Below are positions 9 through 6,498 of a DNA stretch of 6,498 nt, piece after piece. The position numbers and the translations under genes were made by a program. The number at the start of each line of letters is the position of its first letter. Position 1 is the first letter of the stretch. Under the pieces are notes generated by a model. It was not told the DNA's origin. It worked only from the letters and a program-made list of their open reading frames with translations, and did no database searches. The DNA comes from B21-G16 sp003644825 [NCBI: Candidatus Zhuqueibacterota bacterium] (lineage in GTDB: Bacteria > SM23-31 > B21-G16), in the NCBI GenBank assembly GCA_003644825.1, contig QNDJ01000100.1, positions 1-6,498 on the forward strand, read 5' to 3'.

Positions 9-2039
9 ATGTATAAAAAATGTTTTTTGTACATATTCCTGTTATTACTTATACCATTTTTTGTATTTTCACAGGCTGTTAATAAAAGACCCTGGAATAT
101 AGAGGATACTTTTCGCATAAAGAACATTGGTAACTTACAGGTTTCCCCTGATAATAGATATTTACTTTTCACTGTAAGTAAGAGGAGTCTCAGAGATAAT
201 CGTTCTTATACGAGTATATGGGTTATGCCTGCAAAGGGAGGAGAGCCTGTGTCATTGACTTCTCTGAATGGTTCTGCTTTTAGTCCGAGATGGTCACCAG
301 ATGGCAGGAAAATTGCTTATTTTTCGACTGATAAAGATGGATTAGGATTATGGATAATGAACAGGGATGGTTCTGTAAAGAGAAAGTTAACCATCCTTGA
401 AAGGTCTAATGCTTATCTCGGTATGAGAGGGAATGAGCTTAGCTGGTCGCCCTGTGGTAAGATGCTTGCGTATACAGCTGCGGGGCCAAGGCATTATACA
501 AATATACCAAGACCTACTGATCCACCTAATGGTAATGATGTTATGGTTGTGGATAGACTTTTATATAAAGCGTTTTACTATTATTCAGACCTGCGCAGGA
601 CTTATGTATGGGTGATATCTGCTGATGGTGGTAAGCCCAGACAGATATCGTTTGGAGATTACGATTATCATTCTATATCGTGGTCGCCAGATGGTAAAAG
701 AATCGCCTGTGTATCAAATAGAACTGGAAAGGATGATTATAATGCAAATAATGATATATGCTTACTCTCAGTTGATGGTAGCGATATGATACAGTTGACT
801 CATACCGTTGGTCCTGAATATACACCTGTATATTCTCCTGATGGTAAGAAGATTGCATACCTCGGCAGGATAAGGGACCACAGAAGTAAGGAGAGCGATG
901 CTGAACTTCGCAAGGTTTATGTAATACCTTCTGATGGTGGAGCTCCTGTTAATTTAACGGCTCCTCTTGATCGCTGGAGTCAATCCCCGACGTGGAGTTA
1001 TGATAGTAAAGAGGTATATTTTACTGCTCAGAATTCCGGTAGAGTATGTTTATACAGGGCGCCTGCTGATGGTGGAAAAGTTATACCTGTTATTGAGGAT
1101 AACGGTCAGATAACAAGTTTTTCTCTCGGGAAAAATGGTGAAATATTTTATGTATACACAGATTTTACACATCCGCCTGAAATATACTGGAGTATTGTTT
1201 ATGGCAGTGGAAAAGAGAAGTTAACTTCTTTTAACAAAAAAATAACAGAAGAAGTGGAAATTATTGAAAGTGAAGAGTTTTCTTATCCAAGTTTTGATGG
1301 ATTGAGAATAGAAGGATGGTTAATGAAACCTTATGGGTTTAAAAAGGGGAAGAAGTATCCTATGGTTCTTGCTGTGCATGGTGGTCCTCATGGTCAGTAT
1401 GGATACAGACTTTCCCGAACTTATTTATTTCAATTTCTCGCAGCTAATGGATATGTAGTTGTATTCATTAATCCGAGAGGTAGTTCAGGTTATGGCCAGA
1501 AATTTTCAGACGGCTGTGTTGGAGACCTTGGTGGTGGCGATTATAAAGACCTTATGTGTGGAGTTGATTATGTTCTTAAGAAATATGATTTTATTGACCC
1601 TGATAGACTGGGTGTAACCGGTGGAAGCTATGGCGGTTATATGACTAACTGGATAATAACCCACACCAATAGATTTAAAGCTGCAGTTCCTGTTGCAAGC
1701 ATAAGTAATCTTATAAGTCAGTGGGGTACCGATGCCAATACTTTATGGTTTGAGAGTGATGGGGGGGGTATGCCTTTTGAGAATTATGAAAAAGCCTGGG
1801 ATATGTCACCTCTTAAATATATTAAAAATTGTAATACTCCAACACTCTTTATTCACGGGGCCTGGGATTTTTGTGTAAATCTTGGTCAGGCAGAAGAAAT
1901 GTTCACTGCTCTGAAAAAATTGGGAGTTGAAACCGTATTGGCTATTTATCCTAATGAAGGTCACGGTGTTCGTCAACCTGCTCACATTGTTGACTATTAT
2001 GAAAGAACACTTAACTGGTTCAATAAATATTTAAGGTGA
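9..2039 (+). CDS. Exported S9-family (prolyl oligopeptidase type) serine peptidase, DPP5/acylaminoacyl-peptidase-like
   Basis: Probable periplasmic serine peptidase that removes dipeptides or acylated residues from the N-terminus of short peptides. Residues 1-21 form a signal peptide: basic YKK, a Leu/Phe-rich core, and likely cleavage after VFS (19-21). The only Cys there is residue 5, so there is no lipobox. Residues about 40-400 form a TolB/WD40-like propeller with WSPDG-type motifs at 95-99, 146-150, 225-229, 275-279 and 329-333. Residues about 420-676 are the alpha/beta hydrolase. HGGPHG at 457-462 is near the oxyanion site. The predicted triad is Ser540 in GGSYGG, Asp620 in HGAWD and His652 in EGHG. 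The 676-aa length fits exported DPP5-like enzymes. ATG at 9 is chosen because the signal peptide starts there, although the frame is open to the left edge and no ribosome binding site is visible. The family is secure; the exact specificity (DPP5, DPP4-like or acylaminoacyl) is inference. Confidence 0.93.
   Translation: MYKKCFLYIFLLLLIPFFVFSQAVNKRPWNIEDTFRIKNIGNLQVSPDNRYLLFTVSKRSLRDNRSYTSIWVMPAKGGEPVSLTSLNGSAFSPRWSPDGRKIAYFSTDKDGLGLWIMNRDGSVKRKLTILERSNAYLGMRGNELSWSPCGKMLAYTAAGPRHYTNIPRPTDPPNGNDVMVVDRLLYKAFYYYSDLRRTYVWVISADGGKPRQISFGDYDYHSISWSPDGKRIACVSNRTGKDDYNANNDICLLSVDGSDMIQLTHTVGPEYTPVYSPDGKKIAYLGRIRDHRSKESDAELRKVYVIPSDGGAPVNLTAPLDRWSQSPTWSYDSKEVYFTAQNSGRVCLYRAPADGGKVIPVIEDNGQITSFSLGKNGEIFYVYTDFTHPPEIYWSIVYGSGKEKLTSFNKKITEEVEIIESEEFSYPSFDGLRIEGWLMKPYGFKKGKKYPMVLAVHGGPHGQYGYRLSRTYLFQFLAANGYVVVFINPRGSSGYGQKFSDGCVGDLGGGDYKDLMCGVDYVLKKYDFIDPDRLGVTGGSYGGYMTNWIITHTNRFKAAVPVASISNLISQWGTDANTLWFESDGGGMPFENYEKAWDMSPLKYIKNCNTPTLFIHGAWDFCVNLGQAEEMFTALKKLGVETVLAIYPNEGHGVRQPAHIVDYYERTLNWFNKYLR
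1761..1768 (+). repeat. Eight-G homopolymer inside the S9 peptidase gene
   Basis: A run of eight G encodes Gly585-Gly587 as GGG GGG GGT, although most other glycines in this gene use GGT or GGA. The Gly-rich turn itself is expected in this part of S9 catalytic domains, between the nucleophile and the HGxxD segment. A single-base change in the run would shift the frame before Asp620 and His652 and abolish activity. Confidence 0.9.
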
Positions 2040-2195: not shown

Positions 2196-5100
2196 ATGAG
2201 AAAGTTTATTCTATTTTTAATTATTTTTTTTCTGTTGCTCCCGGCTTTTGTTTTTTCCTCAGATTATACCAGATTGCTGAGGTCCCCGGATATAAGTCAT
2301 AATAAGATTGTTTTTGTGTATGGTGGAGACCTATGGACGGTATCAATTGAAGGCGGAGAGGCAATGAGATTAACTGCTCATCCTGGTATTGAAGTTTCTC
2401 CAAAGTTTTCCCCGGATGGAAAGTATATTGCTTTTTCCGGTCAGTATGATGGGAATACAGACGTTTATGTGGTTTCTGCTGAGGGCGGAGAACCAAAACG
2501 ATTGACCTTCCATCCTGGCAGTGACCTGGTTCTGGGGTGGACACCAGACGGTAAGAAGATTTTATTTCAATCAGCCAGATTAAGCTACAGTAGATTTCAC
2601 AGGTTGTTTACAATTGATATAAATGGTGGTTATCCAGAGGTACTACCAATGCCTATGGCAGAACTTGCTGATTATTCCCCGGATGGATGTTACATTGCAT
2701 ATACACCCCTTGCAAATGCTTTTGACACCTGGAAAAGATATAGAGGGGGAAGAACAACACCTATCTGGATATTCAATTTTACTGATAACTCTATAGTAGA
2801 AATTCCTCACGAAAATGCCAGTGATACTTTTCCTATGTGGGTTGGAGATAAAATTTATTTTCTTTCGGACAGGAATGGCACAATGAATCTTTTTTCTTAT
2901 GATACAAAATCTGGCAGGGTCAATCAGTTAACTTACAGCACCGAGTTTGATATAAAGTCAGCTTCAGCAGGAGATAACCTGATAGTTTATGAATGTGGAG
3001 GATACCTTTATATATTTGACCCTTCTGAAAATAGTTCAAAAAGGGTCAATATTAAAGTTCCCAGTGACCTTATAAATGTTCGACCTAAATTTATAAAGGT
3101 GGCGAATCAAATATTAGATGGTGATATATCTCCAACAGGGGTTAGAGCAGTGTTTGAGGCACACGGTGAAATCCTTACAGTTCCTGCTAAAAAAGGTGAT
3201 ATTAGAAATCTTACTAAATCTCCAGGAGCATGTGACAGATATCCGGCATGGTCTCCTGATGGACAATCAATTGCATACTTTTCTGATGCTGACGGTGAGT
3301 ATGCTCTGTATATTGTAGACCAGAAGGGAGAAAAAAAACCGACAAAAATAGCTTTTGAGAATCCTTCTTTCTATTATACGCCCCGATGGTCACCTGATAG
3401 TAAAAAGATTGCTTTTACTGATAAGCATTTACATCTTTATTATTTGGATGTTGAGAAAAAGACACCTATACTTGTGGATACTGACCTTTATTCTGACCCT
3501 GAACGTTCATTAACTCCTGTATGGTCTCCTGATAGTAAGTGGCTTGCATATTCCAGGAGAGTTAATAAGATATTCAGGGCTATTTTCCTGTATTCGCTTG
3601 ACGCTGGGGAATCATATCAGATTACCGACGGAATGAGTGACGCCGTTTCACCATCTTTTGATAAAGATGGTAAATATCTCTTTTTTCTTGCAAGTACAGA
3701 CGCCGGGCCCAAAAAGTGCTGGCTTGACCTTTCTTCATATCCACAACAGGTTACGATGAATATTTACCTTGCAGTTCTTAACAAGGAATTACCATCGCCT
3801 TTTGCACCGGAAAGTGATGATGAAAAAGAAACAAAAAAAGAGGAAAAGGTAAAGGAGACTAAAAAAGAAGAAAAAAAGGAAAGCAAAGTAATAAAAATCG
3901 ATTTAGATGGTATAAGTCAGCGGATTATATCTGTTCCTGTTCCAGCAAGAAACTATACAAATTTGACCGCATGTGATGGTAAATATCTATTTTATATGGA
4001 GTATGTTCCCAATCAACCCGGAAGAAAACTCAATCGATTTGATATGAAAAAAAGAAAAGCAGAAACCTTTATGACAGGTATATCAGGATACACAATCTCT
4101 CATAATGGGAAAAAACTTTTATATATGGCAAGGAATGTATTTGGTATAGTTCCTACTTCGGGAAAACCAAAACCCGGACAGGGAAAATTAAATACTTCTG
4201 CGATGGAGGTAAAAATTGACCCGAGAAAAGAATGGAAACAGATGTTCTATGAAGCGTGGCGTATTAACAGGGATTTCTTTTATGATCCTGGGATGCACGG
4301 TGTTGACTGGAAAATGATGTATAAAAAGTATGCAGAAATGCTGCCCTATGCTGCTCATAGAAGTGATATTAATTTTCTGATTGGAGAGCTAATTGGGGAG
4401 CTTCATGTGGGGCATGCTTATGTTGGAGGTGGAGATTATCCAGAGATTGAGAGAGTTCCAGGGGGGCTATTGGGTGCTGATTATGAAATTGTTAATGGAA
4501 GGTATAGAATTAAAAAGATTTACAGTGGTTTGAACTGGAACCCTGACCTGAGAGCACCTCTTACGGAACCCGGTGTTAATGTAAAAGAAGGTGATTACAT
4601 CCTGAGTGTAAACGGTAGGGAACTCGATGGTTCTATGAATATATTTAGCCTCTTTGAAAAAACAGCAGGAAAACAGGTTACTTTACAGGTAAATTCGGAA
4701 CCAGTTATGGAGGGAAGTAGAAAGATTATAGTTGTTCCTATTGCAAATGAAATGGGTTTAAGAAATCGTAATTGGGTTGAAGGAAACAGAAAGCGTGTTG
4801 AGGAATTATCAGGTGGCAGAGTTGGATATGTATACTTACCAAATACATCAGTTGCAGGTTATATTTATTTTAACCGTTATTTCTTTTCCCAGTTAGATAA
4901 GGAGGGATTGGTTGTTGACGAGAGATTTAATGGTGGAGGTTATGCTGCTGATTATATTGTTGATATGCTTAACAGGCCGCTTTTGAACTACTGGGCTACA
5001 AGAGATGGAAAAGATTTTACAACACCTCTTGGTTCGATTTTTGGACCCAAAGCAATGATAATAAATGAGTATGCTGGTTCAGGAGGAGATGCTCTACCAC

Positions 5101-5417
5101 TTTATTTCAGGCGTCGCAAGATTGGACCCCTTGTTGGTAAGCGTACCTGGGGTGGTCTTATCGGGATTTATGATTATCCTCGACTTATGGATGGGGGTTA
5201 TGTTACAGCTCCACGGGTCGCAATATGGAGCCCTGATGGGGAATGGGAAGTGGAAAATATTGGTGTATATCCTGATATTGAAGTGGAAATGACACCTGCA
5301 GAAGTTATTAATGGCCATGACCCCCAGCTTGAAAAGGCTGTTGAGGTTGTTCTTGAAGCTTTGAAAAAACACCCAATTCACAAACCTTCAAGACCACCAT
5401 ATCCTATTAAGAGGTAA
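2196..5417 (+). CDS. Exported tricorn-type protease (peptidase family S41)
   Basis: Large serine protease expected to cut oligopeptides into very short products, probably as a hexamer. Residues 1-21 are a signal peptide ending VFS, without a lipobox. A first propeller spans about 25-300 (SPDG motifs at 72-75 and 161-164; bacterial hallmark WKRYRGG at 179-185). A second spans about 305-660 (WSPDG at 352-356, WSPDS at 398-402 and 443-447). A Lys/Glu-rich insert lies at 539-564. The helical domain is about 675-755, PDZ about 760-850 (GDYILSVNG, 799-807), and the S41 core about 860-1060. Predicted catalytic residues are His740, nucleophile Ser962 in AGSGGD and Glu1020 in VENIGV, with Gly915 for the oxyanion hole. 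They match Thermoplasma tricorn H746, S965, E1023 and G918, with the S-to-E spacing of 58 kept exactly. The Ser before that His is Gly739 here. Length (1073) matches archaeal tricorn (about 1071). The archaeal enzyme is cytosolic; this one looks exported. Confidence 0.95.
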   Translation: MRKFILFLIIFFLLLPAFVFSSDYTRLLRSPDISHNKIVFVYGGDLWTVSIEGGEAMRLTAHPGIEVSPKFSPDGKYIAFSGQYDGNTDVYVVSAEGGEPKRLTFHPGSDLVLGWTPDGKKILFQSARLSYSRFHRLFTIDINGGYPEVLPMPMAELADYSPDGCYIAYTPLANAFDTWKRYRGGRTTPIWIFNFTDNSIVEIPHENASDTFPMWVGDKIYFLSDRNGTMNLFSYDTKSGRVNQLTYSTEFDIKSASAGDNLIVYECGGYLYIFDPSENSSKRVNIKVPSDLINVRPKFIKVANQILDGDISPTGVRAVFEAHGEILTVPAKKGDIRNLTKSPGACDRYPAWSPDGQSIAYFSDADGEYALYIVDQKGEKKPTKIAFENPSFYYTPRWSPDSKKIAFTDKHLHLYYLDVEKKTPILVDTDLYSDPERSLTPVWSPDSKWLAYSRRVNKIFRAIFLYSLDAGESYQITDGMSDAVSPSFDKDGKYLFFLASTDAGPKKCWLDLSSYPQQVTMNIYLAVLNKELPSPFAPESDDEKETKKEEKVKETKKEEKKESKVIKIDLDGISQRIISVPVPARNYTNLTACDGKYLFYMEYVPNQPGRKLNRFDMKKRKAETFMTGISGYTISHNGKKLLYMARNVFGIVPTSGKPKPGQGKLNTSAMEVKIDPRKEWKQMFYEAWRINRDFFYDPGMHGVDWKMMYKKYAEMLPYAAHRSDINFLIGELIGELHVGHAYVGGGDYPEIERVPGGLLGADYEIVNGRYRIKKIYSGLNWNPDLRAPLTEPGVNVKEGDYILSVNGRELDGSMNIFSLFEKTAGKQVTLQVNSEPVMEGSRKIIVVPIANEMGLRNRNWVEGNRKRVEELSGGRVGYVYLPNTSVAGYIYFNRYFFSQLDKEGLVVDERFNGGGYAADYIVDMLNRPLLNYWATRDGKDFTTPLGSIFGPKAMIINEYAGSGGDALPLYFRRRKIGPLVGKRTWGGLIGIYDYPRLMDGGYVTAPRVAIWSPDGEWEVENIGVYPDIEVEMTPAEVINGHDPQLEKAVEVVLEALKKHPIHKPSRPPYPIKR
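3825..3878 (+). repeat. Tandem 27-base repeat encoding a Lys/Glu-rich nonapeptide twice
   Basis: Two adjacent 27-base units (3825-3851, 3852-3878) encode KETKKEEKV and KETKKEEKK, residues 544-561 of the tricorn-like protein. Eight of nine residues match, while several codons differ only synonymously, so composition is kept while the DNA has drifted. The segment is probably a flexible, highly charged loop between strands of the second propeller. It follows LPSPFAPES, where bacterial tricorn homologues often carry low-complexity inserts (from memory). Confidence 0.8.
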
Positions 5418-5505: not shown

Positions 5506-6498
5506 TTAACAGGGTTGTACTATTTTAAGGTGTTCTTCAACGTATTTTTCGTTTTTACAATATTTTTTAGCTTCTTTTAATCTGTTAATAGCTTCATTTA
5601 AATTTCCTTTTTTATAGAAAATCCAGCCTATTGTATCTAAATGAAAACATTTTTCAGAGTCTGTCCTTGAAAGATTCAGTGCTTTAAAAGCAAGTTTGCT
5701 GGATTTATCAAGATTTTTACCCTGAAAAGCATATATCCAGGCTGGAATTCCATAAAACATACTGTGTATTTCGAATCCTGCTCTTTTTTGAAAACTAATT
5801 GCTTTTTCGCACATTTCAACGGTTTTATCGAATTCACCTGTTGTATATAACCTGTGAATGGTTATGTAGTAATCTAAAACAACTTTAGTAGACAGGTTTC
5901 CCGTTATTTGGAGGGAATTTTCCATTAGTTTCTTTCTTGCTTCCCCGATTTTAATCATTCTTAATGCTGGATTTCTGTTCTCTTTTAGCCAGTAATGATA
6001 ATCCTGGAGAATAATTTCTCTGGAGTTCTTGCTCATATTCTGAAAAATTTTATTTTGAACTTCTTCATTTATATTATGAATAACCCGTGTTATAACTCTT
6101 CTGTCAGTTTTTCTCAAAAGCAATTGAATTTGTATATTATTTAGTTCTCCTATGATTTTATCAAACAGATGACTTTTCAGGATGAGCTCTGTTTCAATAC
6201 TGATTCTTTTATCTTCTTTTCTTTTTAACAATGTATATAATCTTTTTAAATTTACTGGTAGACTAATTCTTTTTTTAGAATACAGGTTGAATAGAGTATT
6301 AAGACAATCCCGTTTAACCATTGTCATTTCAACAGGAGATTCCAGATTTGTTTTCAGGGTTTCAATAAATTGCCTGGACGCATTTTTTGAAAGATTATTG
6401 CAGATTTTATCCTTCAAATCGTTCGATGAATCTGAAAATGCAAGAGCAAGTTTTTCTATGCCTTTATTTTTTATGAATTCCTGAATGAATATTCTCAA
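5506..6498 (-). CDS. C-terminal part of a protein with two FliG C-terminal-like domains and TPR-like repeats (5' end outside window)
   Basis: The visible 330 residues are numbered from the right edge. The edge codon is TTG with no start context, and the first domain is cut, so the gene continues beyond 6498. Residues about 2-80 and 109-195 resemble FliG_C. The first has LALAF at 18-22, then a helix ending NNLSK (34-38), then SPVE (54-57). The second has LFDKII (111-116), LLLRKTD (126-132) and IFQNMSKN (151-158), like the FliG signature FxNMSKR. The NLSK and NMSK motifs lie 119 residues apart, about one domain plus linker. Residues about 208-315 are helical TPR-like hairpins; the best is GWIFYKKGNLNEAI (291-304). 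No signal peptide or membrane segment is visible, so it is probably cytoplasmic. Function is unknown; a protein-binding scaffold is inferred. HEAT-like helical repeats are the main alternative for the FliG-like part. The gene converges on the peptidase pair and shares a terminator with it. Confidence 0.75.
   Translation of the reverse strand: MRIFIQEFIKNKGIEKLALAFSDSSNDLKDKICNNLSKNASRQFIETLKTNLESPVEMTMVKRDCLNTLFNLYSKKRISLPVNLKRLYTLLKRKEDKRISIETELILKSHLFDKIIGELNNIQIQLLLRKTDRRVITRVIHNINEEVQNKIFQNMSKNSREIILQDYHYWLKENRNPALRMIKIGEARKKLMENSLQITGNLSTKVVLDYYITIHRLYTTGEFDKTVEMCEKAISFQKRAGFEIHSMFYGIPAWIYAFQGKNLDKSSKLAFKALNLSRTDSEKCFHLDTIGWIFYKKGNLNEAINRLKEAKKYCKNEKYVEEHLKIVQPC

What the first reader, a model, noticed from the sequence alone, without database searches (positions are those of the whole stretch)
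5900..6498. Tandem FliG C-terminal-like domains fused to TPRs outside any visible flagellar context
Two stretches about 119 residues apart each follow the FliG_C pattern: a 'LLREVDxxDLALALKGA'-like segment, a helix ending N(L/M)SK, then an acidic helix. The second also keeps the preceding F-x-x-x-I strand-helix region (LFDKII). FliG normally has one such domain at its C-terminus; here two precede a TPR-like tail and the protein continues upstream, perhaps with more copies. I know of no described system with this layout. It could be a FliG-derived scaffold or adaptor repurposed from the rotor.
Basis: partly seen in the sequence, partly recalled or inferred. Interest (0 to 1): 0.62.

Follow-up and report, generated by a model that had tools for sequence, protein, structure and literature searches.

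The report
Double flagellar-rotor-like domain protein
An uncultured bacterium and some of its relatives carry a protein with two copies of the flagellar rotor's engine-contact domain, both lacking the residue most tied to torque, so it looks like a rotor part turned into an adaptor or regulator, perhaps of the motor itself.

Summary
The minus-strand ORF at 5506-6498 (330 aa, cut by the contig end) carries two FliG_C (PF01706) matches, each over Pfam's cut-off, 119 residues apart, then a TPR-like tail.

It is not a one-off. Tandem-FliG_C sequence is in 4 of 6 genomes of its phylum: complete in two, cut by the contig end in the window, and in two separate pieces in the fourth. The relatives carry an unknown ~235-residue N-terminal domain before the pair and no TPR tail. 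Second copies group together, window included (96/92). A relative's modelled second copy superposes on solved FliG_C (88 of 89 residues, 2.2 A).

All six genomes have FliM/FliN-family genes and the host has an ordinary FliG elsewhere, so 'outside flagellar context' is true only locally. R281, the torque arginine, is in 0 of 8 tandem copies and 12 of 12 aligned canonical FliGs.

Best reading: a FliG-derived accessory adaptor, slightly more likely than not acting at the motor. A separate multi-FliG_C protein outside the phylum, in one of two genomes beside a FliD gene, shows the layout is not unique. Function is inferred only.

The parts
5506..6498 (-). tandem FliG_C - TPR ORF, 330 aa plus stop, open at its 5' end (contig end)
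   Evidence: the ORF listing; contig C100 is exactly 6498 bases
6325..6486 (-). first FliG_C copy (residues 5-58 matched), truncated on its N-terminal side by the contig end
   Evidence: PF01706 28 bits, E 6e-6, cut-off 23.3; residues at E. coli positions 264/281/289 are S/N/T
5992..6177 (-). second FliG_C copy (residues 108-169 matched); LFDKII at 6151-6168
   Evidence: PF01706 36.8 bits, E 8.1e-9; groups with second copies of relatives, support 96/92, on a long branch
5518..5895 (-). TPR-like helical tail (residues 202-327)
   Evidence: AlphaFold2 model, blocks of pLDDT 72-95; VIA-align Z 15.3-17.4 to TPR domains; Pfam TPR_1 20.4 bits, below its cut-off 27.8; best TPR motif at residues 284-317

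Best explanation
A probably cytoplasmic accessory protein derived from the FliG C-terminal domain. Shown: two FliG_C-type domains without a FliG_N or FliG_M match; a partner-binding or unknown module attached (TPR-like tail in the window, an unknown N-terminal domain in relatives); presence of the tandem in 4 of 6 genomes of a phylum whose six genomes all have FliM/FliN-family genes; absence of the torque arginine from all eight copies, while a canonical FliG is found elsewhere in three of the four carriers. Inferred: the FliG_C domains dock on the flagellar rotor by ARM-type stacking, or on the MotA stator, without transmitting torque, and the attached module brings in or senses another protein, so that the whole acts as an adaptor, brake, clutch or stator-recruiting factor. 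In the second copy an acid at E. coli position 289 (linked in the literature to stator assembly) is kept in 4 of 4 and arginine 281 (linked to torque) in 0 of 4, which fits 'binds but does not drive'.
For: FliG_C matches over cut-off. Relatives: L009, 456 aa, and L010, 460 aa, complete; G001 in two pieces, L034 and L014. A profile of the tandem region lists FliG in 11 of its 20 solved-structure rows, best E 3.2e-10, and everything else at E 0.031 or worse. Modelled second copy of L050 on 1qc7_B: Z 12.9, rmsd 2.2, 88 of 89; on 8ucs_H, FliG bound to MotAB: Z 11.2, rmsd 2.0, 87 of 88; the first non-FliG row has Z 5.7. Torque residues (recounted in 111): K264, R281, acid 288, acid 289, base 297 in 12 of 12 aligned canonical FliGs; R281 in 0 of 8 tandem copies, K264 in 1 of 8, acid 289 in 4 of 4 second and 0 of 4 first copies. 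Roles of R281 and D289 from PMC6079164 (one passage). FliMN_C family in 6 of 6 and FlhA in 4 of 6 phylum genomes. Outside the phylum, a multi-FliG_C protein lies beside a FliD_C gene in one of two genomes.
Against: No flagellar gene recognised beside it in the window or in the flanks listed for three relatives; I read most of these by eye, and only five flank ORFs were scanned. G002, 90% complete with FliG and FlhA, has no tandem protein. G005 has the tandem protein but no FliG or FlhA was found, though it is 63% complete and has FliMN_C matches. Identity between window and relatives is only 19-22% and the TPR tail is in the window alone, so function may differ. In G001 the C-terminal piece is preceded by unrelated sequence with in-frame stops, so the gene is either misassembled or broken there. 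The tool warns that Z under about 13 can be a common arrangement for helical folds. Residue assignments at 288, 289 and 297 rest on alignment of divergent copies. No interaction was tested.
Confidence: 0.5

Rival explanations
1. A FliG_C-derived scaffold that has left the flagellum and serves another cytoplasmic system; the host's motility genes are coincidental.
For: No flagellar neighbour recognised at the loci read (by eye; five flank ORFs scanned); not found in G002, which has FliG and FlhA; a further FliG paralogue of about 240 aa lies beside genes that I read by eye as der, uvrA or ligA and pyk rather than flagellar genes; FliG_C-type domains are fused to other modules elsewhere, e.g. 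a cNMP-binding domain in L080.
Against: All four carriers have FliMN_C-family genes; no conserved non-flagellar neighbour was seen either.
Confidence: 0.33
2. A FliG-type rotor module for a non-flagellar 5:2 motor (ExbBD, TolQR or similar), with the domains meeting a MotA-like stator other than MotA.
For: FliG_C fold kept with an altered stator-facing charge pattern.
Against: No such motor gene was recognised nearby and none was searched for; nothing here tests it directly.
Confidence: 0.07
3. A decaying or idle duplicate under relaxed selection.
For: Window copy very divergent (end branch 2.76 for copy 1, 1.45 for copy 2); lower GC than its neighbours, 0.30 against 0.39; the G001 gene is not in one piece.
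Against: Frame open in the window and in G003 and G005; the relatives share well conserved blocks (45-59% identity), with invariant runs in the N-terminal domain.
Confidence: 0.07
4. Not FliG_C at all but a generic HEAT/ARM or TPR helical repeat that mimics it.
For: Weak overlapping MgtE_N (22.7 and 25.0 bits, cut-off 25.9) and TPR_MalT matches.
Against: FliG_C over cut-off in both copies and in relatives; no HEAT or ARM family listed in scans to E 1; fold match of a relative.
Confidence: 0.03

Closest known systems
FliG, flagellar motor switch protein (TIGR00207, PF01706)
   Same: FliG_C domain sequence and modelled fold
   Different: two FliG_C copies, no FliG_N or FliG_M match, torque arginine absent from all copies, 38.7 bits against the FliG cut-off of 226.7
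FlgY E-ring protein of Campylobacter (MgtE_N/FliG-type ARM domain; PMC11870540, passages read)
   Same: an accessory motor protein built from a FliG/MgtE-type ARM domain
   Different: FlgY is described with a predicted signal peptide and a long helix before one such domain; here two FliG_C copies, and the strongest hydrophobic stretch of two full-length relatives is not at the N-terminus
Multi-FliG_C protein of genomes G137 and G274 (L073, L074; unnamed, outside the phylum)
   Same: an N-terminal unknown region followed by several FliG_C-like copies
   Different: two clear copies and a weaker third; homology of the whole proteins to the window family not detected (hhalign probability 0.6%); one of the two lies beside a FliD_C gene
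FliF_C-FliG-TPR fusion frame of genome G217 (L090, 722 aa)
   Same: FliG_C followed by TPR repeats
   Different: also holds FliF_C and FliG_M
YcgR brake (PMC10140304, start of abstract in the listing) and MotV/MotW (PMC8789113, passages)
   Same: proposed role only: proteins outside the rotor core that act on FliG, FliM or MotA
   Different: not compared by sequence here; an analogy of function

Membership tests
FliG_C domain (PF01706) | profile match over the curated cut-off | tested here: met
   28 and 36.8 bits separately, cut-off 23.3; 57.4 bits whole protein
FliG_C domain (PF01706) | fold superposes on solved FliG_C | tested here: met
   met for the second copy of relative L050: 1qc7_B Z 12.9, 88 of 89, rmsd 2.2. 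For the window model FliG appears only at Foldseek ranks 24-25, E 0.015, probability 1.00, behind TPR proteins, and not among the 50 VIA rows
FliG (motor switch protein) | equivalog score TIGR00207 | tested here: not met
   38.7 bits against 226.7; relatives 34.8, 32.6, 18.8
FliG (motor switch protein) | FliG_N and FliG_M domains | tested here: not met
   no such family listed to E 1 for full-length relatives L009 and L010 or for the window protein; the window gene's own N-terminus is missing and so untested
FliG (motor switch protein) | charged torque residues K264, R281, D288, D289, R297 | tested here: not met
   R281 in 0 of 8 copies against 12 of 12 aligned FliGs
MgtE_N | profile over cut-off | tested here: not met
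   22.7 and 25.0 bits, cut-off 25.9
TPR | TPR fold in the tail | tested here: met
   Z 15.3-17.4 to many TPR domains in a predicted model
TPR | Pfam TPR score over cut-off | tested here: not met
   best TPR_1 20.4 against 27.8; hence 'TPR-like' in this report
FlgY / E-ring protein | signal peptide and long N-terminal helix plus one ARM domain | tested here: inconclusive
   hydropathy maximum of two relatives lies at residue 69 and 371; no signal-peptide program was available; the window N-terminus is missing
motor accessory protein (works like) | physical contact with rotor or stator | not testable with these tools
   needs binding or localisation experiments

The most novel reading that the evidence does not exclude
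A previously undescribed kind of motor component: a protein with two or more FliG_C domains that offers torque-dead copies of the rotor's stator-facing domain, so that it binds stator units or stacks on the C-ring without driving it, with an exchangeable sensor or adaptor module, and that has arisen in at least two separate lineages.
Probability: 0.25. Interest if true: 0.7.

Novelty: new variant of a known kind. Interest (0 to 1): 0.5.

Why it matters
FliG_C is the point where the stator pushes the rotor. A protein with two such domains that keep the fold and lack the torque arginine would be a natural separation-of-function experiment: it would let one ask which contacts bind a stator and which drive rotation. 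It would also add a candidate motor part in a lineage with no cultured member known to me, and the survey hints that rotor domains have been reused more often than the one-FliG textbook picture suggests.

Tried and rejected
Tested and dropped: HEAT/ARM or generic helical repeat (no such Pfam family listed to E 1). FliG itself (score far below cut-off). More FliG_C copies upstream (the relatives have an unrelated domain there). A distribution of multi-FliG_C proteins confined to the phylum: the tandem profile suggested it, but a family search over the same 386 genomes gave 175 with FliG_C, of which 37 outside the phylum had two or more matches (my count from its table). I re-examined 53 of the 175: those 37 and 16 with a single match weaker than about 1e-22, and fetched 20 stretches, two of which hold the multi-FliG_C protein. 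The match list was cut and the other rows were not inspected one by one, so further cases may exist. Many second matches lie in FliG-sized frames and I take them for the FliG middle domain. One more genome, G157, had a match spanning both halves of the tandem profile; its frame is 352 aa with one FliG_C match, i.e. FliG-sized.

Led nowhere: scan of genome contigs with the window protein (no relative confirmed). The relatives' N-terminal domain: Pfam best E 0.11; 3 of 386 genomes, the known relatives; structure mostly under pLDDT 50, so its fold is untested rather than new. Recovery of the window gene's 5' end. Relation of the G137/G274 proteins to this family (not significant, but profiles of two and three sequences). 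Whether first copies, or both copies, or both with the 240-aa paralogue form one clade is unresolved (AU p 0.315, 0.385, 0.319); a profile comparison links copy 1 with that paralogue (probability 85%). Ten paper searches (nine on FliG terms, one on the organism name) showed no description of a tandem FliG_C protein in their listings; two searches were swamped by the word 'flight', only the top rows were shown, and most subscription journals are not held, so this is weak evidence of absence. PMC8789113 matched 'FliGC' and TPR but concerns MotV and MotW.

The 'third' FliG_C copy of G137/G274 is weak (i-E 0.014; 0.024 and 0.053). The 240-aa paralogue L006 does match Pfam FliG_N over its cut-off, but on the stretch of its FliG_M match. 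Identities are 19-22%, not 19-21%.

Full report
What is there. The window is a whole contig (6498 bases) of a fragmented genome, G000 (2.48 Mb, 493 contigs, 83.6% complete). Its minus strand carries an open frame at 5506-6498, 330 residues. The TTG that the ORF list gives as start is simply the first codon at the contig end, so the true start is not in the window. Two genes on the plus strand, an S9 peptidase (9-2039) and a tricorn-type protease (2196-5417), point towards it and look unrelated.

The two FliG_C domains are real. Pfam FliG_C matches at 6325-6486 (28 bits) and 5992-6177 (36.8 bits), cut-off 23.3; together E 2e-15. NCBIfam's FliG model gives 38.7 bits against a cut-off of 226.7: related to FliG, not FliG. 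A profile of the tandem region (window plus relatives) searched against solved structures has FliG in its first 11 of 20 rows (best E 3.2e-10) and other proteins only from E 0.031; the window sequence alone finds designed TPR proteins first (E 7.9e-7) and FliG next (E 9.3e-5). The window model (pLDDT 85.6, pTM 0.59) is all helical; its tail, residues 202-330, matches TPR domains at Z 15.3-17.4. Structure lists for the window model are filled by TPR proteins; FliG appears at Foldseek ranks 24 and 25.

Relatives. Apart from TPR matches, the window protein's best matches are in three genomes of its class, G003, G005 and G001 (E 8.8e-13, 6.8e-12, 3e-9; the best FliG is at about 1e-5). Two proteins are complete: 456 aa (L009, G003) and 460 aa (L010, G005). 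In G001 the N-terminal 327 residues (L034) run off the end of one contig, and the C-terminal 156 (L014) are on another, preceded there by unrelated sequence with in-frame stops and without any shared 16-base word; whether this is misassembly or a broken gene is open. That the phylum is GTDB's SM23-31 is my recollection, not a tool result. The relatives have a ~235-residue N-terminal domain with invariant runs, then two FliG_C copies, and no TPR tail. That N-terminal domain has no Pfam match better than E 0.11, was found in 3 of 386 genomes, these same three, and did not model with confidence. It was not found in G000, so whether the window gene begins with it is unknown. Identity of window to relatives over the pair is 19-22%. 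A tree of 24 single domains puts the window's second copy with the relatives' second copies (96/92), but the tool flags both window copies as long branches, and the first copy is not placed.

Fold. In the L050 model (the same protein as L010) the pair is modelled at block pLDDT 60-90, and residues 362-456 superpose on Thermotoga FliG_C, 1qc7_B (88 of 89, rmsd 2.2, Z 12.9), and on FliG bound to the MotAB stator, 8ucs_H (87 of 88, rmsd 2.0, Z 11.2); the first row that is not FliG has Z 5.7. The tool cautions that for helical folds Z under about 13 can mean a common arrangement; here sequence and fold agree.

Flagellar context. 'Outside any visible flagellar context' holds for the window, and I recognised no flagellar gene in the flanks listed for the relatives (read by eye; five flank ORFs scanned, giving a methyltransferase, a SpoIIE phosphatase, a GGDEF protein and two without a family). 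But G000 has an ordinary 338-aa FliG on contig C165, in a run of genes that I read by eye as fliF, fliG, fliH, fliI and fliJ. FlhA is found in 4 of 6 and FliMN_C-family genes in 6 of 6 genomes of the phylum. The tandem is in 4 of 6. Against a strict link: G002, 90% complete, has FliG and FlhA but no tandem protein; G005, 63% complete, has the tandem protein and FliMN_C matches, but no FliG or FlhA was found.

Torque residues. In E. coli FliG, R281, D288 and D289 are of primary and K264 and R297 of secondary importance; D289 is linked to stator assembly and R281 to torque (PMC6079164, one passage). The E. coli positions were checked on the K-12 sequence. In 12 of 12 canonical FliGs aligned, K264, R281, an acid at 288 and 289 and a base at 297 are kept. 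Of 8 tandem copies R281 is kept in 0, K264 in 1, an acid at 288 in 7. At 289 second copies have an acid in 4 of 4 and first copies in 0 of 4; at 297 second copies have a base in 4 of 4 and first copies in 0 of the 3 that have a letter. The 297 assignment is the least certain because of a length difference before it. The pattern suits a domain that could still meet the stator but not take its push. That is inference.

A wider picture. The phylum has a further FliG paralogue of about 240 aa in 4 of 6 genomes (G000-G003; in G002 a frame of 251, 175 from its first ATG), beside genes that I read by eye as der, uvrA, or ligA and pyk. The G000 copy matches FliG_M and FliG_C, with a FliG_N match on the same stretch as FliG_M, and aligns to FliG positions 111-335. 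All four have N at the R281 position, and a profile comparison links copy 1 of the tandem protein to this paralogue (probability 85%), a hint at its source. Over 386 genomes 175 have FliG_C. Of 53 of these looked at again, two of one family, G137 and G274, have a protein with two FliG_C copies by Pfam (36.8 and 40.3 bits for the whole proteins) and a weaker third by my own profiles, behind a different N-terminal region. Its relation to the window family was not detectable, and a profile of it found no other full-length match in the 386 genomes. In G274 it lies beside a FliD_C gene; in G137 beside genes that I read by eye as mutS and proC. A FliF_C-FliG_M-FliG_C-TPR frame in G217 shows that FliG_C followed by TPR also occurs within a rotor-type protein.

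Verdict. It is a new variant of a known kind: an accessory FliG_C protein. No step of the mechanism has been tested.

Noticed in passing
L006:322-1041 (-), L069:3406-3933 (+), L070:85-810 (+), L071:6399-7124 (-): A FliG paralogue of about 240 aa covering the middle and C-terminal domains, away from flagellar loci (beside genes read by eye as der, uvrA, or ligA and pyk), with N in place of the torque arginine in all four genomes that have it.
   Followed up: partly
L073:2357-3796 (-), L074:1440-2972 (+): Proteins of about 480-510 aa with two clear and a third weak FliG_C-like copy behind an unknown N-terminal region in two genomes of one unnamed family; one lies beside a FliD_C gene.
   Followed up: partly
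L090:1630-3795 (-): A 722-aa frame matching FliF_C, FliG_M, FliG_C and TPR in that order: an apparent natural MS-ring/C-ring fusion with a TPR tail; long frames with FliG_C in G076, G342 and G048 may be similar.
   Followed up: no
L080:1889-3127 (-): A cyclic-nucleotide-binding domain and a C-terminal FliG_C domain in one 413-aa frame, possibly a ligand-controlled regulator.
   Followed up: no
L031:1-370 and L072:2341-3321: The G001 copy of the tandem gene is in two contigs that share no word, and the C-terminal piece is preceded by unrelated sequence with in-frame stops: misassembly or a real break.
   Followed up: partly
window 5506-6498: The tandem FliG_C ORF has GC 0.30 against 0.39 for both neighbouring genes.
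   Followed up: no
window 9-2039 and 2196-5417: An S9 prolyl-oligopeptidase-type and a tricorn-type protease in a row on the plus strand, both with PD40 propeller repeats.
   Followed up: no
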